NCBI RefSeq assembly: GCF_014863605.1
Contig: NZ_CP062252.1
Coordinates: forward strand, 1,249,001 to 1,313,000
Direction: 5' to 3'
Length of the DNA stretch: 64,000 nt
DNA from: Pseudomonas allokribbensis
Lineage (GTDB): Bacteria > Pseudomonadota > Gammaproteobacteria > Pseudomonadales > Pseudomonadaceae
Part shown: positions 42,176 through 52,065 of the stretch, piece by piece
How the letters are laid out: the number at the start of each line of letters is the position of its first letter
Position numbering within the stretch: the stretch's first letter is position 1
Notes under the pieces: model-generated
The model's input: only the letters and a program-made list of their open reading frames with translations
What the model was told of the DNA's origin: nothing
The model's database searches: none
Made by a program: the position numbers and the translations under genes

Positions 42176-43210
42176 TTAGTTGTGAGCGTGCAGCGCTTCG
42201 TTCAGTTCGATCGCCGATTTGTGGGTCTTGCATTCCACGGCACCGGTTTCCGAATTGCGACGGAACAGCAGGTCGGTCTGACCGGCCAGTTCACGGGCCT
42301 TGACCACTTTGACCAGGTTGTTGTGCTCGTCCAGCAGCGCCACCTTGGTACCGGCGGTCACGTACAGGCCCGACTCGACGGTGTTGCGGTCGCCCAACGG
42401 GATACCGATACCGGCGTTGGCGCCGATCAGGCAGCCTTCGCCGACCTTGATCACGATGTTGCCGCCGCCCGACAGGGTGCCCATGGTCGAGCAGCCGCCG
42501 CCCAGGTCCGAACCCTTGCCGACGAACACGCCAGCGGAGACGCGGCCTTCGATCATGCCCGGGCCTTCGGTACCGGCGTTGAAGTTGATGAAACCTTCGT
42601 GCATCACGGTAGTGCCTTCGCCCACATAGGCGCCCAGACGCAGACGTGCGGCGTCAGCGATACGCACGCCGGCCGGAACCACGTAGTCGGTCATTTTCGG
42701 GAACTTGTCCACCGAGAACACTTCCAGCAGCTCGCCGCGCAGACGGGCTTCGAGTTGCAGCTCGGCCAGTTCGCTCAGGTCGATCGCGCCCTGGCTGGTC
42801 CAGGCAACGTTTGGCAGCAGCGGGAAGATCCCGGCCAGGCTCACGCCGTGCGGCTTGACCAGACGATGGGACAGCAGGTGCAGCTTGAGGTAAGCCTCAG
42901 GCGTGGAAGTCAGTTGCGCGTCTTCGGCCAGCAGGGTGGCGACCAGCGGCTTGTGGCTTTCGGCCAGGCGGGTCAGCAGCTTGCCTTGTACCGCGTCGAT
43001 GCCTTTCACGGCTTCAGCCAGTTGGGCGGCTTGTGCTGTGGTGAAGGTGATGGCCTGGTTGCCTTCGGTGTAACCGAGGATCGGTGCAACAGCGGCGACC
43101 AGCTCGGCCGAAGGATTGAGCAGTGGCTGAGCGTAGAACACTTCCAGCCATGCGCCTTGACGGTTCTGGGTGCCGACGCCGAAGGCAATGCTGAACAGGG
43201 AATTGGACAT
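42176..43210 (-). CDS. dapD: Tetrahydrodipicolinate N-succinyltransferase DapD
   Basis: This trimeric left-handed beta-helix enzyme of 344 residues transfers succinyl from succinyl-CoA to tetrahydrodipicolinate. Hexapeptide-type repeats are clear from about residue 170 to 270 (ADAARLRLGAYVGEGTTVMHEGFINFNAG, then VGKGSDLGGGCSTMGTLSGGG). The first ATG with GAGG before it (43210) was chosen; the longer frame is not supported. It is the DapD2-type of Pseudomonas, longer than the E. coli protein. It sits downstream of an ArsC-like gene on the same strand. Confidence 0.96.
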   Translation of the reverse strand: MSNSLFSIAFGVGTQNRQGAWLEVFYAQPLLNPSAELVAAVAPILGYTEGNQAITFTTAQAAQLAEAVKGIDAVQGKLLTRLAESHKPLVATLLAEDAQLTSTPEAYLKLHLLSHRLVKPHGVSLAGIFPLLPNVAWTSQGAIDLSELAELQLEARLRGELLEVFSVDKFPKMTDYVVPAGVRIADAARLRLGAYVGEGTTVMHEGFINFNAGTEGPGMIEGRVSAGVFVGKGSDLGGGCSTMGTLSGGGNIVIKVGEGCLIGANAGIGIPLGDRNTVESGLYVTAGTKVALLDEHNNLVKVVKARELAGQTDLLFRRNSETGAVECKTHKSAIELNEALHAHN

Positions 43211-43241
43211 GTGAATACCTCTGCAAAAAGTGACGGGCTGC

Positions 43242-43604
43242 TTACTTGAGGGCGGCCGCGTAGATATCTGGCTTGAAGCCAATCAGGGTTCGGTCACCGA
43301 GATCGAGCACCGGGCGCTTGATCATCGAGGGTTGAGCGAGCATCAGTTCGATGGCTTTCGACTGGTCGAGATCGGCTTTGCGTTCGTCGTCGAGTTTGCG
43401 AAAGGTCGTGCCTGCGCGGTTCAACACCGTTTGCCAGCCGTGTTCGTCACACCATTGGGTCAGGTGTTCACGGTCGATGCCGGCGGTTTTGTAATCGTGG
43501 AAGTCGTAGCTGACAGCGTGTTCATCGAGCCAGGTGCGCGCCTTTTTCATGGTGTCGCAGGCTTTGATGCCGAAAAGGTGCAACGTTTTGCTTGAAACGG
43601 TCAA
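43242..43604 (-). CDS. ArsC/Spx-like reductase family protein (YffB type)
   Basis: This is a thioredoxin-fold protein of 120 residues. The family motif is FGIKACDTMKKARTWL, with one Cys in place of a CxxC pair, then DFHDYKTAGI, RPVLDLG and an end (GFKPDIYAAAL) as in YffB. It probably works with glutathione but the substrate is unknown. The TTG at 43604, preceded by AGGGGG at a reasonable distance, was chosen; the frame extends to 43730, but that part is not family-like. It is located upstream of dapD, 31 bases away. Confidence 0.88.
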   Translation of the reverse strand: MTVSSKTLHLFGIKACDTMKKARTWLDEHAVSYDFHDYKTAGIDREHLTQWCDEHGWQTVLNRAGTTFRKLDDERKADLDQSKAIELMLAQPSMIKRPVLDLGDRTLIGFKPDIYAAALK

Positions 43605-43787
43605 GGAATCGCCCCCTTTACAGGTGCTGGAGAAAAATGGTGTCGGATTATGCCATGACCAAACCGTTTCGCGGCGGCCGAGGTTGATTTCCCGGACGGG
43701 GGCTGCGACATAGGTGCAACGGTCAGCCACAGCCTAAGCGGCTAATATGGCAGTTCAACGCTGTCGATTGTCTGAGATTTCCGCTTT

Positions 43788-45419
43788 ATGCAAACCGCTT
43801 ATACGGTCCTGATCCTGCTGATGCTGGTCAGTGTTTCGCGTCTGGTCGGACGGGTCATCCCGTTGCCGCTGCCGCTGGTACAGATCGCCGCCGGGGCTTT
43901 GCTGGCCTGGCCGACTCTCGGCCTGCACGTGGCTCTGGATCCCGAGCTGTTCCTGTTTCTGTTCCTGCCGCCGCTGCTGTTTTCCGATGGCTGGCGCATG
44001 CCCAAGCGCGAACTGTGGCGTCTGCGCGGGCCGGTGCTGACGCTGGCGGTCGGGTTGGTGCTGTTTACCGTGGTAGGTGCCGGCTACTTCATTCACTGGC
44101 TGCTGCCGACGATTCCATTGCCGGTGGCGTTCGCGCTGGCGGCGGTGTTGTCGCCGACCGACGCCGTGGCGGTGTCGGCGATTTCGCAGAACCGCTTGCC
44201 GACGCCGCTGATGCACATGCTGCAAGGCGAAGCGCTGATGAACGATGCCTCGGGCCTGGTGACGTTCAAGTTCGCCCTGGTTGCGGCGGTCACTGGCGCG
44301 TTTTCCTTGGCCAACGCCAGTCTGACGTTCGTGCTGGTGGCGGTCGGCGGGCTCGCAGTCGGTGTGGCATTGAGTTGGTTGGTGGGGCGGCTGCGGGCAT
44401 GGATGATCGCTCGGGGCTGGGACGATCCGGCGACCCACGTGGTGTTCATGTTGCTGCTGCCGTTTGCCGCTTACGTGTTGGCCGAACGGCTCGGCGCCTC
44501 GGGCATTCTCTCGGCAGTGGCAGCGGGGATGATGCAGAGCTGGCTCGACCTGCTGCCGCGCCAGACCAGCACCCGTTTGCTCAACCGCAGCGTCTGGTCG
44601 TTGCTGGAGTTCGCCTTCAACGGTTTGATCTTCCTGCTGCTCGGCCTGCAATTGCCGGACATCATCAAGGCTGTGGTCAGCCACGAGACTTCTTTGTGGC
44701 CGACGCTGTTCTATCGCTGCCTCGATGTGGTGGCGATTTTCCTGGCGCTGGTGCTGTTGCGCTTTATCTGGGTGCAGAGCATCTGGCGTCTGTCGGTGTT
44801 GCTGCGTCGCTTGCGCGGCAAGGGTGAATTGACACAAGTGCCGACTGCCCGGTCCTGCTGGCTGCTGACCGTCGGCGGTGTGCGCGGTGCGGTGACCCTG
44901 GCGGGCGTGATGTCGGTGCCGATGCTGATGGGCAGCGAGGCGTTTCCCGAGCGTGATTTGCTGATCTTCATCGCCGCCGGGGTGATTTTGATGTCGCTGG
45001 TCGCAGCCTGCATCGCCTTGCCGTTGCTGCTGCGCGGAATCCAGAAAAGCCCCGACGACAAACGCCGCCAGGAAGTGCGCGACGCCTGGCGCAAGACGGC
45101 GGAAGCAGCGATTCATGCGCTCGAGATCGAAGAGGTCAACCCACAGGACGCTGCGCAAGCCGCGCTGTCAGCGGAACTCAAGGCGCGGATCATGTCCGAG
45201 TATCGCCATCAACTGGAGGTGTTCAACGATTCGGCTGAAGCCCAGGCGCTGGCATTCCAGATGGATCTGCTTGAGCGCCGTTTGCGCCTCAAGGCGCTGC
45301 GCGCGCAACGCCTTGAGCTGTACAGCCTGAGTCGTCAACACCAGATTGGCGATGACGTGTTGCGGGAGGTGTTGGGCGAATTGGATTTGAGTGAGGCCAA
45401 TCTGGGGCAGGTCAAGTAA
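43788..45419 (+). CDS. CPA1-family Na+/H+ antiporter
   Basis: This is an inner-membrane protein of 543 residues with 12 or so transmembrane segments followed by a soluble C-terminal tail (about 420-543). Ion-site motifs are visible: LSPTDAVAVSAIS in TM5-like position, EALMNDASGLVTFKFAL in TM6 and GVRGAVTLAGVM in a later segment. These fit the NhaP/YjcE group. The tail is charged and helical. It is the last gene before a cluster of convergent peptidase genes and probably ends there. Confidence 0.92.
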   Translation: MQTAYTVLILLMLVSVSRLVGRVIPLPLPLVQIAAGALLAWPTLGLHVALDPELFLFLFLPPLLFSDGWRMPKRELWRLRGPVLTLAVGLVLFTVVGAGYFIHWLLPTIPLPVAFALAAVLSPTDAVAVSAISQNRLPTPLMHMLQGEALMNDASGLVTFKFALVAAVTGAFSLANASLTFVLVAVGGLAVGVALSWLVGRLRAWMIARGWDDPATHVVFMLLLPFAAYVLAERLGASGILSAVAAGMMQSWLDLLPRQTSTRLLNRSVWSLLEFAFNGLIFLLLGLQLPDIIKAVVSHETSLWPTLFYRCLDVVAIFLALVLLRFIWVQSIWRLSVLLRRLRGKGELTQVPTARSCWLLTVGGVRGAVTLAGVMSVPMLMGSEAFPERDLLIFIAAGVILMSLVAACIALPLLLRGIQKSPDDKRRQEVRDAWRKTAEAAIHALEIEEVNPQDAAQAALSAELKARIMSEYRHQLEVFNDSAEAQALAFQMDLLERRLRLKALRAQRLELYSLSRQHQIGDDVLREVLGELDLSEANLGQVK

Positions 45420-45461
45420 GTTGCGGGTGCGCCTGTTCGATCAATGAACCGGTGAGCGAAA

Positions 45462-46214
45462 TCATGGGCGGTACGACGGATCGTCAGGGGATTCGGAAGG
45501 CGTCTCCGGGTAGACCGCTCTGACCAGACGAATGTCTTCTTCGCTGAGCATCATGTTTATGCCGACCTCCAAGAGGTCGTCCGTGAATGCTTTATCAATC
45601 GGGTAATGCATGATCGACAGTCTGTCGTAGTCCGTAAGCACCGGGCGTAACTCGTGGATAGGATCGAAAAAATTTCGGTCGATCTCTTCGCGACTCCAGC
45701 CGAGTGCGGCGTAGTGGTCCCGGACTTTGGATTTGTTCCAGGGGATATTCGCCTCAGGGTGCAAGTGCTCGTGCTGGAGGCCGAGTACGTGACCAAATTC
45801 GTGAAGTACTGTTGCTTCGAAAAACTCGGAGCCGGGTTTTTCTGCGATCCAGGTCGTCGGTTCACCGGGGGTTGCCAATAAAGCATCTGTGCCGATCGCA
45901 GAAAGGTTCTCCTGGGTATTTGTCTTGATTCTGATCGTTGCAGCAAGGGAACTGACGAAAACGATATTCAGGTTCGTCAACCTTGCCCATTTCCAGATGG
46001 TTCTTTTAAAGGCCTGTTTGTCATCTTCGCTTAAGTCATCCAGAAAACAGACGGAAAGCGTTCGGAAGTTTTTCCAGAGTTTTGAGTAGAGCCCGACCGA
46101 GTGCATAGAGTTGCTGTCTGCTCGTGAGTTTCCAGGGCGTTCCGTGATGGCGGTCTTGTAAGAAAGAAAGGGGTCAGCGGCTTGAAAGGTTTTGCATAGG
46201 TTGCGGCAGTTCAT
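45462..46214 (-). CDS. Astacin-like (M12A) zinc metallopeptidase, paralogue 1
   Basis: This is a putative zinc endopeptidase of 250 residues. The signature HEFGHVLGLQHEH (His138, Glu139, His142, His148) matches HExxHxxGxxHE of astacins, and the Met-turn SIMHY is at 200-204 with the switch Tyr204. No Sec or lipoprotein signal is present. The N-terminal piece (TERPGNS...SMHSVGLYSKLW) aligns with the pro-like region of the other two copies but has lost the polybasic site. Codon use looks less GC-rich than the flanking genes. It is last in the three-gene run and convergent with the antiporter gene, ending 42 bases from it. Confidence 0.88.
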   Translation of the reverse strand: MNCRNLCKTFQAADPFLSYKTAITERPGNSRADSNSMHSVGLYSKLWKNFRTLSVCFLDDLSEDDKQAFKRTIWKWARLTNLNIVFVSSLAATIRIKTNTQENLSAIGTDALLATPGEPTTWIAEKPGSEFFEATVLHEFGHVLGLQHEHLHPEANIPWNKSKVRDHYAALGWSREEIDRNFFDPIHELRPVLTDYDRLSIMHYPIDKAFTDDLLEVGINMMLSEEDIRLVRAVYPETPSESPDDPSYRP

Positions 46215-46280
46215 TACTCAATTTCCCTATTAGAGTCTGGATGGTTTGGGGCGCTTTAAATAGGGCCCTGGTTGAATGGT

Positions 46281-47039
46281 TCAGTCATGCTGGACCGCAG
46301 AGTGTGGATAGGCCTTTTCCATGAACGCCTTGTCCTTTTCGCTGAGCACCAGATTCAGATCAATCTTGAAGTTGCCGTGGGTCCAGTTCTGGCGCACGGC
46401 GTAATGCATGATCGATTTCGGATCGTAAGGCGAATAGTCGAAATCGCTGGCGTCGAGCAGGTTGAAGTACCGTTCATCGACAGATCGGCGGGCGTAGTCG
46501 TCTTCGTCGGCGTTTTCGTCCACCCAGTGTGCAGCGTAGACCGCAGGCTTGTTCCAAGGGATGTTCGACTCGGGATGCAGGTGCTCATGTTCGGCGCCCA
46601 GAGCATGTCCGAACTCATGCATGACATTGGCGGCGAACAATGCCGGGGCGAGATGGTGCTCCGGGGACAGCCTCATGGTGGGTTCTTCTGCTTCGACCAG
46701 CAGCGCGTTGGTTCCGATCATCGACCAGTAAATGCCGTCTTCACTGCTGATACGGATATCTCCCGTCTCACCTTCGACAAAGTCGAACGTCAGGTTGATA
46801 TGAGGCAGCCAGTTGTTCGCCGCGGATTTGACGGCGTCCTTGAACGCTTGATCACCACTCAGGAACGCGATGCGCAAGGTCCGGCCTGGCGCCCAGAAGT
46901 AACCGTGTTTCCCGACGGCTCGTTTTTTACGAGCGGATGCCGAGGTTTTTTCATTGGCTGGGTTCTCGTCTACAGCGACTTCATAAGCGCGTTGAAGCGA
47001 AACCGTTTTTTCTGTAAGGCAAAGTGTTGCGGAGTTCAT
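46281..47039 (-). CDS. Astacin-like (M12A) zinc metallopeptidase, paralogue 2
   Basis: This is a protein of 252 residues with the signature HEFGHALGAEHEH (His141, Glu142, His145, His151) and Met-turn SIMHY at 209-213, so all zinc ligands and the Tyr switch are in place. Before the catalytic domain lies a region with DENPANE and the polybasic site RKKRAV (about 24-42), followed by FWAPGRTLRIAF, a possible pro-segment boundary. No signal peptide. It is 66 bases upstream of paralogue 1 in the same direction, with a candidate promoter in the 183-base gap behind it. Confidence 0.9.
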   Translation of the reverse strand: MNSATLCLTEKTVSLQRAYEVAVDENPANEKTSASARKKRAVGKHGYFWAPGRTLRIAFLSGDQAFKDAVKSAANNWLPHINLTFDFVEGETGDIRISSEDGIYWSMIGTNALLVEAEEPTMRLSPEHHLAPALFAANVMHEFGHALGAEHEHLHPESNIPWNKPAVYAAHWVDENADEDDYARRSVDERYFNLLDASDFDYSPYDPKSIMHYAVRQNWTHGNFKIDLNLVLSEKDKAFMEKAYPHSAVQHD

Positions 47040-47170
47040 GCTAAGTGTCCGTACTGATGTTGATCCAATAGGCTGTTGTTTATTTCGGGCAAGTTGGGCC
47101 GGATAACAGGCGGGTGAAAGCTAAAGGAAAGTGCGGATTGAACAAAGTCGGGTTGTGTTGCGTGATATTG

Positions 47171-47203
47171 AAAGTTCGCGAGGTGTTGCGCCAGGCGAAC
47201 TTT
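47171..47203 (-). terminator. Hairpin between peptidase paralogues 3 and 2
   Basis: AAAGTTCGC and GCGAACTTT form a 9-bp stem with a 15-base loop, 20 bases past the stop of paralogue 3 on the minus strand. It would separate that gene from the next two. Confidence 0.6.
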
Positions 47204-47222
47204 TTGTGTCGGTGTCGGTTAT

Positions 47223-47951
47223 TTATTTTGGATAAAGCAATCGCATCAGTCGTTTGTCTTTTCTACTGATCCGGCGGTTGATCGGCACTTCCCAGTTGCC
47301 CATTGTCAATGTGTTTGCCACCGGGTGATGCATGATCGATTTTCGGTCGTAGGAGGTGTAGATCGCGTCGAGTGTGTCGAAGGACGCGAACAGGTTCCTG
47401 TCGACCTGCTCCTCGGTCAGCGGGTTCATTTCACGGTTCTTGTAGAACTCGTACACCTTTGGCTTATCCCATGGAATATTGGCCTTGGGGTGTTGATGTT
47501 CGTGCATTGCACCCAGTGCGTGGCCGAATTCGTGGATCACGATCACCTCAAAGTCTTCATGTTCCGGTTTGACCCCCAGGTTCATGGTGGGATGGTCGGG
47601 GTGGATCAACAGCGCATCGGTGCCCAGCATCGAGTTGTTGTCATTGTTCTTTGTTGCAATCCGGATGTCGCCTTTCAAATCGTCGACAAATTCAAACTTC
47701 AGGTTGATGTACGGCAGCCATTGCCTGGCTGCAGCGATAATCCTGTTCTTGTGATCGGTATCGGGTGAATCCATGAAGGCAACTTTCAAGGTTCGGCCGT
47801 TGGCCCATAGCTTTGAATAGTTAATGACGGAGCGTTTGCGTCGGGTGCCAGTATTTGCGCCTGCATTGGCGGGGTTTTCATTGATGGCCGCCGCGTACGC
47901 AGCTTGATCATCGGGCCATTGAATAAGTTGGCAATCCAGCAGGTTGTTCAT
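47223..47951 (-). CDS. Astacin-like (M12A) zinc metallopeptidase, paralogue 3
   Basis: This is a protein of 242 residues from ATG 47951, which has AAGGAAG eight bases before it; GTG 47957 is also possible. The signature is HEFGHALGAMHEH (His140, Glu141, His144, His150). The Met-turn reads SIMHH (205-209), so the tyrosine normally following the Met-turn His is replaced by His. The N-terminal NENPAN and RRKRSV, then KLWANGRTLKVAF, mirror paralogue 2. No signal peptide. It is the first of the three in transcription order, with a nested inverted repeat in its leader. Confidence 0.88.
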   Translation of the reverse strand: MNNLLDCQLIQWPDDQAAYAAAINENPANAGANTGTRRKRSVINYSKLWANGRTLKVAFMDSPDTDHKNRIIAAARQWLPYINLKFEFVDDLKGDIRIATKNNDNNSMLGTDALLIHPDHPTMNLGVKPEHEDFEVIVIHEFGHALGAMHEHQHPKANIPWDKPKVYEFYKNREMNPLTEEQVDRNLFASFDTLDAIYTSYDRKSIMHHPVANTLTMGNWEVPINRRISRKDKRLMRLLYPK

Positions 47952-47974
47952 GTTCACTTCTTCCTTGAAGTTAA

Positions 47975-48020
47975 AGTCTTGAGTTTGTTTTAGGCGCAGA
48001 GATATGCGCGGCTCAAGACT
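47975..48020 (-). promoter_or_regulatory. Nested inverted repeat upstream of the peptidase cluster
   Basis: AGTCTTGAG (47975-47983) pairs exactly with CTCAAGACT (48012-48020), and inside them GCGCA and TGCGC pair again. It begins 24 bases before the start codon of paralogue 3 and could be an operator or a leader hairpin. Confidence 0.5.
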
Positions 48021-48083
48021 AACGTCTGGCCGGACGGCAAGTGGGGTAAATAGTTGGAGGATCTGTAACTTGTTGTATGAGGC

Positions 48084-48112
48084 GCCCGTGCCGGATTGCC
48101 CGGCGCGGGCGT
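48084..48112 (-). terminator. Hairpin after dapC
   Basis: CGCCCGTGCCGG pairs with CCGGCGCGGGCG over 12 positions with one G-T pair and a 5-base loop, eight bases past the dapC stop. No T-run follows. Confidence 0.55.
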
Positions 48113-48119
48113 TCAGGCA

Positions 48120-49319
48120 TTACTTGTGGCGCAGAACGAAATCGCGAATGCGCTCGGCCGCTTCCACGCATTCCGCCAGCGGCGCGACCAGCGCCATGCG
48201 TACACGACCGGCCCCGGGGTTGACCCCGTCGACATCGCGGGACAGGTACGAACCCGGCACCACGGTCACGTGCTCTTCGGCAAACAGATCACGGCAGAAC
48301 GCCGCGTCGTCACCTTGCACGTTCGGCCACAGGTAGAAGCTGCCATCCGGGCGCTGTACATCCATCACCGGGCTGAGAATGGCCAGCACGGCATCGAACT
48401 TCTCGCGATACAACGCACGGTTGGCGCGTACATGCACTTCATCGTTCCACGCGGCAACGCTGGCCAGTTGGGTCTGAACCGGCATCGCGCAGCCGTGGTA
48501 GGTGCGATACAGCAGGAAGCCCTTGAGGATATCGGCGTCGCCGGCAACGAAACCGGAGCGCAGGCCCGGCAGATTCGAGCGCTTGGACAGGCTGTGGAAC
48601 ACCACGCAACGCTTGAAATCCTTGCGACCCAGTTCGGCGCAAGCGCTGAGCAGGCCCGGCGGTGGCGTTTGCTCGTCGAAGTACAGCTCGCTGTAGCACT
48701 CGTCGGCGGCGATCACGAAGTCGTACTCGTCGGCCAGGGCGATCAGCTTTTTCAGGACGTCGACCGGAATCAGCGCGCCGGTCGGGTTGCCTGGCGAGCA
48801 CAGGAACAGGATCTGGCAGCGTTTCCAGATCTCCGGCGACACCGCGTCGAAGTCCGGGTTGAAGCCGTTTTCATCCAGGCATGGCAGGTAGTGCGGCTTG
48901 GCGCCGGCGAGGAACGCCGCACCTTCGTAGATCTGATAGAACGGGTTCGGGCTGACCACCAGCGCGTCGTCGCCACGGTTGACCACGGTCTGGGTGAAGG
49001 CGAACAGCGCTTCACGGGTGCCGTTGACCGGCAGCACATTGCGCGCCGGATCGATCCAGCCGCCCGGTACGTTGAAGCGACGTTCGCACCAGGCTGCAAT
49101 GGCCTCGCGCAGGGCCGGGATGCCCAGGGTGGTCGGGTACACCGCCATCTGATCCAGATTGTTGGCCAGCGCCTCGGCGACAAAGCTTGGCGAACGGTGT
49201 TTCGGCTCGCCGATGGACAGCGCGATCGGGCGCTTGTCCGGGTTCGGCGTGACGCTGCCGAGCAGGGCGCGGAGCTTTTCGAACGGGTAGGGCTGCAACT
49301 GGGTCAGAGCGTTGTTCAT
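48120..49319 (-). CDS. dapC: N-succinyl-diaminopimelate aminotransferase DapC
   Basis: This is a PLP enzyme of 399 residues, class I/II. It transaminates N-succinyl-2-amino-6-ketopimelate with glutamate in the succinylase lysine path. The PLP lysine is in HSLSKRSNLPGLRSGF, with NPFYQIYEGAA, CSPGNPTG and ADECYSELYF as expected. The C-terminus contains FYLWPNV and PGAGRVRMALVAP. It is downstream of glnD on the same strand, 43 bases away. Annotation as DapC rests on this context, shared with other Pseudomonas. Confidence 0.9.
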   Translation of the reverse strand: MNNALTQLQPYPFEKLRALLGSVTPNPDKRPIALSIGEPKHRSPSFVAEALANNLDQMAVYPTTLGIPALREAIAAWCERRFNVPGGWIDPARNVLPVNGTREALFAFTQTVVNRGDDALVVSPNPFYQIYEGAAFLAGAKPHYLPCLDENGFNPDFDAVSPEIWKRCQILFLCSPGNPTGALIPVDVLKKLIALADEYDFVIAADECYSELYFDEQTPPPGLLSACAELGRKDFKRCVVFHSLSKRSNLPGLRSGFVAGDADILKGFLLYRTYHGCAMPVQTQLASVAAWNDEVHVRANRALYREKFDAVLAILSPVMDVQRPDGSFYLWPNVQGDDAAFCRDLFAEEHVTVVPGSYLSRDVDGVNPGAGRVRMALVAPLAECVEAAERIRDFVLRHK

Positions 49320-49362
49320 CGGTGCTGGGTCTCGTGCAAAGCGGTTGAATCCGGGCGCTCAG

Positions 49363-52065
49363 TCAAATGCTGATACGCGACAGTTTGATATCGGGTTCCT
49401 GATTGACGCTGAGCTGCTCAACGATTGCATCCTGCAAACGGCTGCACAGCAGCGGGTCGGACAGCGGCTGATTGTGGGCGTCGGTGATGAAGAACACGTC
49501 TTCCACCCGCTCGCCCAGGGTGGCGATCTTGGCGTTCTGCAGCGACAGATCGAACTCCAGGAAAATCCCGCCGATCCGTGCCAGCAGGCCTGGACGGTCG
49601 GGTGCGGTGAGTTCCAGCACCGTCACCGGACGCTGGGCGTCGTTGTGGATCGTTACTTGTGGTGCGAACGCAAAGTGCTTGAGCTGGCGCGGCACCCGAC
49701 GCTGGATGATGGTCGGGTAATCGTCCGGGTTGCGCAGGGCTTCGGTCAGGCCGTCGCGGATCTGTTTGACCCGGGTCGGATTGTCGCCGATGGATTCGCC
49801 TTCGGTGTCGAGCACGATGTAGGTGTCGAGGGTGAACTGGCTGCTGGAGGTGATGACCCGGGCGTCGTGAATGTTCAGGTTGAGCTGGTCCATCGCGGCC
49901 ACGGTCACGGCGAAGAAATCGTGCTGGTCCGGCGCATAGATGAAGATCTGCGTACCGCCCTCGAATTCGCGCTGGGTGGTTTCCTTGATCAGCACCAGCG
50001 GCCCGCCGTCGGCCGGCTGCTGGAGAATCGCATCGCTGTGCCAGGCCACGTCGCCGGCAGTGTGGCGCAGGAAATAGTCATCGCCCAGTTGCGCCCACAA
50101 CTGCTCGACATCGTCCGGATCGGTGCCGCCGCGCACCAGAATATCCAGCGCTGCGCTCTGGGTCTGGCGGATCTGTTCTTCGCGATCCACCGGGTTTTCC
50201 AGGCCGCGGCGCAGGGCGCGCTTGGTCTCGGTGTAGAGCTGGCGCAACAGGCTGGCGCGCCAGGAGTTCCACAGGGTCGGGTTGGTCGCGTTGATGTCGG
50301 CCACGGTCAGCACGTACAGGTAATCCAGACGGGTTTCATCACCGACCGCCAGGGCGAAGTCATGGATCACCTGCGGGTCGGACAAATCCTTGCGCTGGGC
50401 GGTGGTCGACATCACCAGGTGGTTTTGCACCAGCCAGACGATCAGGCGACTGTCCCACACCGGCAGTTGGTGGCGCTGACAGAACGCCTCGGCATCGACC
50501 GCGCCGATCTCCGAGTGGTCGCCATGCCGGCCCTTGCCGATGTCGTGATACAGGCCTGCCATGTAGATGAGTTCGGGCTTGGGCAACTTGGCCATGAGCT
50601 TGGCGGCCAGCGGGAATTTTTCCGACACCTGGGTGTACTGCAATTTACGCAGGTGCTTGATCAGATTCAGCGTGTGCGCGTCGACCGTATAAATGTGGAA
50701 CAGGTCGTGCTGCATCTGCCCGACGATGAAGCCGAACTCCGGCAGGTAGCGCCCGAGAATGCCGTAGCGGTTCATTCGCCGCAGGTTGCGGTGGATGCCG
50801 ATCTTGCACTTGAACAGTTCGATGAACAGGCTGGTATTGCGGATGTCGTTGCGGAAGTTGTCGTCGATCAGGTGACGGTTTTCCCGCAGCAGACGAATGG
50901 TGTCGGCGCGCACGCCTTTGATTTCCGGCTGCTGGGCCATCAGCACGAAAATCTCGAGCATGGCGAACGGTGTACGGCGGAACACGTTGTCGTTGCGTGC
51001 TTCGATGTAACCGTCGTGCAACTGGAAGCGCGAGTTGATCGGCTGCGGTGGCGCTTCGTCTTCCGGGGCGAGGATGACTTCCTCGAAGTGCTGGATGATC
51101 AGGTCGCTGAGCTGGGCGATGCTCATCACCACGCGGAAATACTGCTGCATGAAGTTTTCGACAGCCTGCTTGGCGTCGTCACCTTCAAACCCCAGCAGCC
51201 CCGCAATAGTGCGTTGATGATCGAACAGCAGGCGGTCTTCGGAGCGCCCGGCCAGCATGTGCAGGGCATAGCGCACTTTCCACAGGAATTCCTGGGACGA
51301 CGCCAGCAGTGCGTTTTCGCTCTCGACCAGAAAGCCTTCGCCTGCCAGGGCGCGCAGGTTCAGGGTGCCGTACTGGCGACGGGCGACCCACAGAATCGTC
51401 TGAATATCCCGTAGTCCGCCGGGTGAGCCTTTGACGTTGGGTTCCAGGTTGTATTCGGTGTCGTTGTACTTGTGGTGGCGGGCCTTCTGCTCGGCGCGCT
51501 TGGCCAGGAAGAACTCCTTGGCCGGCCACATGTGGGCGGTGCTGGTGACATCGAGCATGCGCTGGCGCAGACGCTCGGGACCGCAGATGGTGCGGCTTTC
51601 CATCAGGTTGGTGACCACCGTCAGGTCGGCGCGGGCCTCTTCGGCGCACTCGTCCACCGAACGAACGCTCTGACCGACTTCCAGGCCGATGTCCCACAAC
51701 AGCGTGAGAAAACGCTCGATGGAATCGCGGAAGATTTCGTGATCGGCGCTGTCCAGCAGGATCAGCAGGTCGATATCGGAATAGGGGTGCAACTCACCGC
51801 GACCGTAGCCGCCGACCGCGACCAGCGCGATGTCGGCGTCTTCGCTCCAGTTGAACTGGTCCCAGGCCTTTTGCAGGATGTTGTCGACGAACCAGGCGCG
51901 ATCCTCGATCAGTCGCCGGATGTCGCGGCCGCTGCGAAAACGTGCGTCGAGCACTTCGCGGGCCTGGCGGATCGCCTTCTTGAAGGCGGCGATAGGGCTC
52001 GCTTTCAGGGCCAGTTCAGCCTGGAACTGGCCGCGGTCGAAGAGTTCGGGATCCACCTGCGGCAT
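49363..52065 (-). CDS. glnD: Bifunctional PII uridylyltransferase/uridylyl-removing enzyme GlnD
   Basis: This nitrogen sensor of 900 residues uridylylates PII when nitrogen is low and removes UMP when glutamine is high. The nucleotidyltransferase site is [17 protein letters not shown] with Asp97 and Asp99. The HD domain is in the middle ([19 protein letters not shown] and [16 protein letters not shown]), and two ACT domains end the protein (about 700-780 and 815-890; [17 protein letters not shown]). Full length and intact. Divergent transcription is not seen: map lies upstream on the same strand after 40 bases. Confidence 0.97.

What the first reader, a model, noticed from the sequence alone, without database searches (positions are those of the whole stretch)
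45462..47957. Three tandem astacin-like peptidases with no signal peptide, inserted in conserved gene order
Seen: three consecutive minus-strand genes of 242-252 residues, each with HExxHxxGxxHE and a SIMH Met-turn, none with a Sec or lipoprotein signal. Paralogues 2 and 3 share (N/D)ENPAN and a polybasic site (RKKRAV, RRKRSV) before GRTL(R/K)(I/V)AF, like a pro-segment and cleavage junction. They look less GC-rich than the flanks. Known: astacins are normally secreted and made as zymogens. From memory, the Na+/H+ antiporter and dapC genes are neighbours in PAO1, so the cluster looks like an insertion. Inference: a small family exported by a non-Sec route or acting inside the cell, perhaps in competition or defence.
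Basis: partly seen in the sequence, partly recalled or inferred. Interest (0 to 1): 0.72.

Follow-up and report, generated by a model that had tools for sequence, protein, structure and literature searches.

The report
Cytoplasm-made astacin zymogens under Gac/Rsm control
Many Pseudomonas carry, usually at one fixed spot in the chromosome, small protease genes that seem to be made inside the cell as locked precursors, with a single cysteine as the likely lock, a basic cutting site as the likely key, and an RNA hairpin that probably keeps them silent until the Gac/Rsm system releases them.

Summary
The three minus-strand genes are real, and each has a PF01400 (astacin) catalytic domain. Their nearest solved relative is myroilysin, a cysteine-switch astacin. 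None has a signal peptide under any ATG, GTG or TTG start. They are not a recent insertion: relatives were found in 104 of 298 genomes of the genus, and 56 of 60 carrier genomes inspected (picked for score or diversity) hold them in the dapC-antiporter interval. The paralogues are old, separate clades, and low GC is a family trait.

Three features emerge. (1) A ~40-residue prosegment has a Cys exactly 18 residues before ENPxN in 119 of 130 homologues; cysteines are almost absent elsewhere. Two AlphaFold models dock the prosegment; 8 of 14 pro-MMP-9 alignments imply Cys7 on the switch residue. (2) A conserved R-x-K-R precedes the catalytic domain in paralogues 2 and 3; paralogue 1 lost it. (3) A CsrA/RsmE-type ANGGAN-hexaloop hairpin ends 4 nt before all three start codons. 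It covaries across the family; 3 of 285 control leaders have one.

Best reading: Gac/Rsm-gated, cytoplasm-made cysteine-switch zymogens, matured by a basic-specific protease after release. Export route and target are unknown. No secretion, immunity or defence gene was recognised beside them; the window's genome has no T3SS secretin over cut-off.

The parts
47223..47951 (-). Paralogue 3, signal-less astacin zymogen, 242 aa (ATG start; the listed ORF begins at a GTG at 47957)
   Evidence: PF01400 28.9 bits; Met-turn SIMHH
47832..47951 (-). Prosegment of paralogue 3, residues 1-40: Cys7 (47933-47931), ENPAN 25-29 (47879-47865), RRKR 37-40 (47843-47832)
   Evidence: AlphaFold pLDDT 83 and 90 for residues 11-20 and 21-30
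47956..47971 (-). Leader hairpin ACTTC-AAGGAA-GAAGT, ANGGAN hexaloop on a 5-bp stem over the SD, ends 4 nt before the ATG
46281..47039 (-). Paralogue 2, signal-less astacin zymogen, 252 aa
   Evidence: PF01400 24.1 bits; nearest solved relative myroilysin, E 2.5e-35
46920..47039 (-). Prosegment of paralogue 2, residues 1-40: Cys7 (47021-47019), ENPAN 25-29 (46967-46953), RKKR 37-40 (46931-46920)
   Evidence: AlphaFold pLDDT 78 and 89 for residues 11-20 and 21-30
47044..47055 (-). Leader hairpin AGT-ACGGAC-ACT, ends 4 nt before the ATG
45462..46214 (-). Paralogue 1, signal-less astacin, 250 aa; Cys7 and ERPGN kept, basic site lost
   Evidence: PF01400 30.2 bits
46219..46232 (-). Leader hairpin TAAT-AGGGAA-ATTG, ends 4 nt before the ATG
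48120..49319 (-). dapC, conserved flank of the fixed site
43788..45419 (+). Na+/H+ antiporter gene, the other conserved flank; missing or fragmentary in some carriers

Best explanation
The genes encode cytoplasm-made astacin (M12A-fold) zymogens. Translation is probably repressed by a CsrA/RsmE-family protein bound to an ANGGAN hairpin over each Shine-Dalgarno site, and freed when GacS/GacA-driven small RNAs such as RsmZ titrate that protein. The protein folds as a latent enzyme: the short prosegment packs on the active-site cleft, with the ENPAN region as anchor and Cys7 as zinc ligand (a cysteine switch). Paralogues 2 and 3 are then matured by cleavage after R-x-K-R by a kexin-, furin- or trypsin-like protease, most likely after non-Sec release, in another organism or outside the cell; oxidation of Cys7 could also open the lock. 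Shown: fold family, absence of a signal, fixed Cys and basic site, covarying hairpins, old fixed location. Inferred: latency, Rsm binding, cleavage, release route and target.
Against: No binding, cleavage or activity data. Paralogue 1 lacks the basic site; 4 of 130 ENPxN-class proteins lack the Cys. 25 of 53 ENPxN-class leaders have no such hairpin, the three window hairpins are no more stable than shuffles (z -0.15, 0.69, 0.78), and two of the five covariation measures (pairs with any double change, further pair types) do not exceed shuffles. The start picker favoured SD-bearing starts, in controls as well. Models hold no zinc and no coordinates were seen; 6 of 14 pro-MMP-9 rows begin at another offset, and the pro-myroilysin rows (1 with 21 or 22) do not by themselves put residue 7 on its switch Cys. 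The pro-less clade shows that the prosegment can be lost.
Confidence: 0.62

Rival explanations
1. The enzymes are intracellular housekeeping or stress proteases that stay latent in the reducing cytosol and open on oxidation; the basic site is cut by a bacterial protease inside the cell, with no release.
For: No signal peptide; a single fixed Cys suits a reducing cytosol; two distant plasmid homologues lie beside caspase-like genes of bacterial conflict type, and the one in Bradyrhizobium shares an AIAENPENAP stretch.
Against: Patchy presence (104 of 298 genomes), paralogue turnover and Rsm-type leaders suit an exoproduct better; caspase genes occur in only 12 of 40 carriers and 2 of 20 non-carriers tested.
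Confidence: 0.25
2. They are T6SS- or T3SS-delivered effectors.
For: Small, signal-less, almost free of cysteines outside the prosegment; own genome has two T6SS sheath loci.
Against: T3SS secretin over cut-off in 9 of 40 carriers and 5 of 20 non-carriers, and not in the window's genome; no hrp box (recalled consensus) in the window; T6SS sheath absent from carriers G043 and G087 and present in 18 of 20 non-carriers; no immunity gene recognised beside the dapC-site copies.
Confidence: 0.12
3. A recently imported genomic island.
For: GC and codon usage differ from the flanks.
Against: Same interval in 56 of 60 inspected carrier genomes; old paralogue clades whose subtrees group the same genomes; low GC in all 51 dapC-site copies; no match in the phage collection.
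Confidence: 0.05

Closest known systems
Myroilysin (Myroides), PDB 5gwd / 5czw / 5zjk
   Same: Nearest solved relative in sequence and fold; prosegment of similar length (the mature entry 5zjk aligns from its residue 41 or 42); cysteine-switch astacin (review PMC9848320, passages)
   Different: Described as a secreted enzyme (recalled); here no signal peptide, ENPAN and R-x-K-R in the prosegment, Rsm-type leader, tandem paralogues at a fixed chromosomal site
Animal astacins, BMP1/tolloid, meprins (M12A)
   Different: Aspartate switch (FXGD) and signal peptide are absent here, and with so few cysteines disulfides are unlikely
LegP, Legionella Dot/Icm effector
   Same: Bacterial astacin-like protease; weak NCBIfam similarity
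   Different: 11-28 bits against a cut-off of 300; no such secretion context seen here
Protealysin and emfourin (Serratia, M4)
   Same: Intracellular metalloprotease made as a precursor (PMC9505478, passages)
   Different: Different peptidase family; inhibitor gene in the same operon there, none recognised here
Gac/Rsm target leaders such as hcnA
   Same: ANGGAX hexaloop directly on a stem over the ribosome binding site (PMC4005645, passages)
   Different: Target here is a signal-less protease zymogen; regulation not tested

Membership tests
M12A astacin (catalytic domain) | Profile match over curated cut-off | tested here: met
   PF01400 30.2, 24.1 and 28.9 bits against 22.5; no MEROPS library was on hand
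M12A astacin (catalytic domain) | HExxHxxGxxHE and Met-turn | tested here: met
   Invariant in A2 and A3; the residue after SIMH is Tyr in paralogues 1 and 2, His in paralogue 3
M12A astacin (catalytic domain) | Astacin fold | tested here: met
M12A astacin (usual whole architecture) | Signal peptide | tested here: not met
   No start further upstream; no hydrophobic N-terminus by eye
Aspartate-switch astacin zymogens | FXGD motif in the prosegment | tested here: not met
   Absent by eye in the window prosegments; Cys7 instead
Cysteine-switch zymogens | Conserved prosegment Cys | tested here: met
   119 of 130 at the same spacing to ENPxN
Cysteine-switch zymogens | Cys bound to the catalytic zinc | tested here: inconclusive
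   8 of 14 pro-MMP-9 rows imply residue 7 on Cys99, 6 do not; no coordinates, no zinc
LegP (NF045530) | NCBIfam cut-off of 300 bits | tested here: not met
   28.4, 21 and 11.4 bits
CsrA/RsmE target mRNA | ANGGAN hexaloop on a stem at the SD | tested here: met
   All three genes, stems of 5, 3 and 4 bp
CsrA/RsmE target mRNA | Binding and repression | not testable with these tools
   Needs gel shift and fusion assays
Proprotein-convertase (R-x-K-R) substrate | Cleavage after R-x-K-R | not testable with these tools
   Motif conserved; cleavage needs N-terminal sequencing

The most novel reading that the evidence does not exclude
A bacterial protease family, silenced by Rsm and released without Sec, is locked by a cytosol-compatible cysteine switch and is unlocked by a eukaryotic kexin- or furin-type convertase through a conserved R-x-K-R site, so that it becomes active only in a host, predator or fungal cell. 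One lineage dropped the lock, its start codon lying within two residues of the proposed cleavage site.
Probability: 0.15. Interest if true: 0.82.

Novelty: new variant of a known kind. Interest (0 to 1): 0.57.

Why it matters
[quoted passage not shown] Here is a large, divergent Pseudomonas family with what looks like the same kind of lock in proteins that carry no export signal, plus a conserved convertase-like site and a covarying RNA hairpin. It ties a protease family, for which my searches showed no study, to the Gac/Rsm regulon and makes release route, activator and target directly testable in laboratory strains.

Tried and rejected
Recent island or insertion: rejected on synteny, tree and GC. 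Hidden signal peptide from another start: rejected. T3SS with hrp box: not supported. T6SS: uninformative, 56 of 60 genomes have it, 2 carriers do not. Caspase-like activator in Pseudomonas: 12 of 40 carriers and 2 of 20 non-carriers, so not required. Prosegment shared with unrelated effectors: profile A1 on the own genome found only the three astacins and one chance match (E 3.5). Phage origin: no match. PADLOC: nothing for the three proteins. Rfam over 43000-52000: nothing at gathering score. Promoter and terminator scan: no more than shuffles. Window-wide CANGGANG scan: 43 hits, 41.8 expected, so the bare motif says nothing without its stem. Partner genes: 6 of 33 dapC-site loci have unassigned gaps of 400 bp or more; the largest, in L046, holds an acyltransferase-SGNH gene, the rest hold at most short ORFs that I did not identify. 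Literature: the listings showed no paper on these Pseudomonas proteins; the listings are capped (20 of 1,898) and the library holds open-access papers only. Fossil prosegment upstream of the pro-less genes: of nine loci from seven genomes only L020 keeps an upstream stretch with a Cys.

Full report
What is there. Three minus-strand ORFs at 45462-46214, 46281-47039 and 47223-47957 encode 250, 252 and 242 aa (the third from the ATG at 47951; the listed ORF begins at a GTG six bases upstream). All pass the Pfam Astacin cut-off. NCBIfam gives only sub-cut-off matches, among them AbsR1 and LegP. The nearest solved proteins are myroilysins (E 2.5e-35 for paralogue 2). No in-frame ATG, GTG or TTG lies further upstream in the three open frames and the N-termini are not hydrophobic (by eye), so there is no Sec signal; no Tat-like N-terminus is visible either (the RR of paralogue 3 is at residues 37-38 with no hydrophobic stretch).

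Where it sits. In 298 genomes of the genus, 104 have a match to paralogue 2. I looked at the surroundings of 69 carrier loci: the 29 best-scoring (L004-L032) and 40 picked by hand for diversity (L033-L072). All 29 of the first set lie in the dapC / antiporter / arsC interval (in L007 only the antiporter side is held) and 33 of the 40 lie beside dapC; by my count of the handles this is 56 of 60 distinct genomes. The other seven loci (L036, L063, L064, L067, L070, L071, L072) lie elsewhere and still have R-x-K-R before the catalytic domain in at least one copy each. In 30 genomes without the genes, 13 have dapC and the antiporter 22-256 bp apart, a fourteenth (L121) is similar once its split hits are read together, and in five dapC directly adjoins arsC. 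Some carriers have antiporter fragments beside or between the astacin copies (L010; L026 and L044, one genome; L035; L053), which look like scars of unequal duplication or of antiporter decay. Of 33 dapC-site loci 27 have no unassigned gap of 400 bp or more beside an astacin or dapC; the one large extra gene, in L046, is an acyltransferase-SGNH protein. Small genes would escape this test.

History. A tree of 88 catalytic domains puts the window's paralogues in three separate clades (7 rows, 100/98; 19 rows, 100/99; 21 rows, 100/100). In the paralogue 2 and 3 clades the same genomes group together (window, L004, L005; L007, L008, L009), which is what vertical descent of an old array gives; I built no species tree and ran no congruence test. 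All 51 copies beside dapC are lower in GC than dapC (mean 10.5 points). So low GC is no sign of a recent arrival.

The prosegment. An alignment of 68 sequences, chosen mostly for having a prosegment, has Cys7, A22, E25, N26, N29, R37, K39 and R40 at 90% or more. Of 173 homologues held, 130 are of the ENPxN class; 126 of these have a Cys before the motif, 119 at exactly 18 residues; 109 have no cysteine anywhere else, and 19 cysteines fall in 26,175 residues after the prosegment. A lone cysteine at a fixed place in the prosegment of a metzincin suggests a cysteine switch. Both AlphaFold models dock residues 11-30 (block pLDDT 78 and 89; 83 and 90), with a helix at 15-25 and low confidence at the basic site. 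Structural alignment reports only first and last aligned residues. Of 14 MMP-9 rows that include propeptide residues, eight start with an offset that puts residue 7 on residue 99 (one row begins exactly at 7 with 99), and six begin at 1 with 91. Cys99 is the switch cysteine of MMP-9 (PMC6211011, passage). The offsets in the proMMP-2, proMMP-3, proMMP-10 and karilysin rows also fit their switch residues, whose numbers I recall and did not check. The two pro-myroilysin entries begin at 1 with 21 or 22 in both calls and do not settle the register.

The basic site. R-x-K-R occurs in 72 of 79 ENPxN-class proteins of P0001-P0120 and in 47 of 56 from loci, and also in 20 of 34 locus ORFs without ENPxN. 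P4, P2 and P1 are near-fixed and P3 varies, which is the recalled pattern of furin/kexin sites. Paralogue 1 and its tree relatives lack it. In one clade inside the paralogue 2 group (6 rows, 100/99) the protein starts MWAK or MWIK with no prosegment; by alignment, Met lies at P2 and Trp at P1 (my reading). Possible intermediates keep prosegment and Cys but read RMMW in place of RKKR (P0060, L154), which fits a start codon arising within the cleavage site. Which start those genes use is unknown.

The leader. Each window gene has, ending 4 nt before its ATG, an ANGGAN hexaloop directly on a stem of 5, 3 or 4 bp, and all three loops appear in the minimum-energy folds, though with ordinary stability (z -0.15, 0.69, 0.78). 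In 53 distinct ENPxN-class leaders 28 have a stem of 3 bp or more (200 shuffles: mean 0.3, largest 2) and 22 have 4 or more; in pro-less leaders 1 of 7, in others 4 of 28. Of 285 leaders of other genes, picked by a similar rule from the window and L033-L072, 3 and 1. On 37 distinct pieces that hold ANGGA, whatever their stem, 66.5% of cells pair, against 40.2% shuffled and 23-45% slid, with 58 double changes against 25 (0 of 500 shuffles each); the counts of pairs with any double change and of further pair types do not exceed shuffles. Related sequences can exceed shuffles without structure, but stems as different as ACTTC/GAAGT, CAAAC/GTTTG and AGT/ACT around a constant loop are hard to explain otherwise. 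PMC4005645 (passages) names the hexaloop ANGGAX directly on a stem as the high-affinity CsrA/RsmE site. The own genome has four CsrA-family genes and RsmZ.

How it probably works. Rsm protein blocks translation until Gac signalling titrates it; the protease is made in the cytosol, locked by Cys7 and the ENPAN-anchored prosegment; after release it is cut after R-x-K-R. All steps after the sequence features are inference. The activator could be bacterial, environmental (trypsin-like) or eukaryotic (kexin or furin). T3SS is not the likely route in this genome (no secretin over cut-off), T6SS is not required across the family (38 of 40 carriers, 18 of 20 non-carriers have it), and no partner gene was recognised at the dapC site.

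Beyond Pseudomonas. In 398 genomes of the phylum only 12 match paralogue 3, six of them in the genus. Three of the others (L079, L080, L086) have an ATG that would give a Cys-bearing N-terminus without evident signal, and R-T-R-A or R-A-R-A where Pseudomonas has R-x-K-R-A; their starts are unsure. A Bradyrhizobium plasmid homologue carries AIAENPENAP and lies beside a caspase-domain gene, and a Sinorhizobium plasmid homologue lies beside a protein that is caspase-like by PADLOC but not by Pfam. This suggests an older link to intracellular proteolytic cascades and keeps the intracellular rival alive.

Verdict. Real, old and coherent; a new variant of a known kind (cysteine-switch astacin). The surprising parts are the absence of a signal, the convertase-like site and the covarying Rsm-type hairpins.

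Noticed in passing
L093:3932-6067 and L094:3926-7334: Signal-less M12 homologues on Bradyrhizobium and Sinorhizobium plasmids lie directly beside caspase-like genes; the Bradyrhizobium one shares the AIAENPENAP stretch of the Pseudomonas prosegment.
   Followed up: partly
L101:5247-7519: M12 homologue on a Thiodictyon plasmid lies beside a TIR-domain gene.
   Followed up: no
window 47223-47951: Paralogue 3 has SIMHH instead of SIMHY: the Tyr next to the Met-turn His is replaced by His, as in 54 of 173 homologues held.
   Followed up: partly
L154, P0060: Homologues with an intact prosegment but RMMW in place of RKKR, as if a start codon had arisen in the cleavage site; the related MWAK clade has no prosegment.
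   Followed up: partly
L010, L026, L035, L044, L053: Antiporter fragments beside or between astacin copies, like duplication scars or antiporter decay (L026 and L044 are one genome).
   Followed up: partly
G000:C1:347386-349479: Two caspase-domain (PF00656) genes close together elsewhere in the window's genome.
   Followed up: no
L046:6828-8960: An acyltransferase-SGNH gene lies between two astacin copies in this genome.
   Followed up: partly
window 45462-47957: NCBIfam model 'beta-glucuronidase AbsR1' matches all three proteins over the protease domain (48-72 bits, far below its cut-off of 650), so that family may itself be astacin-like.
   Followed up: no
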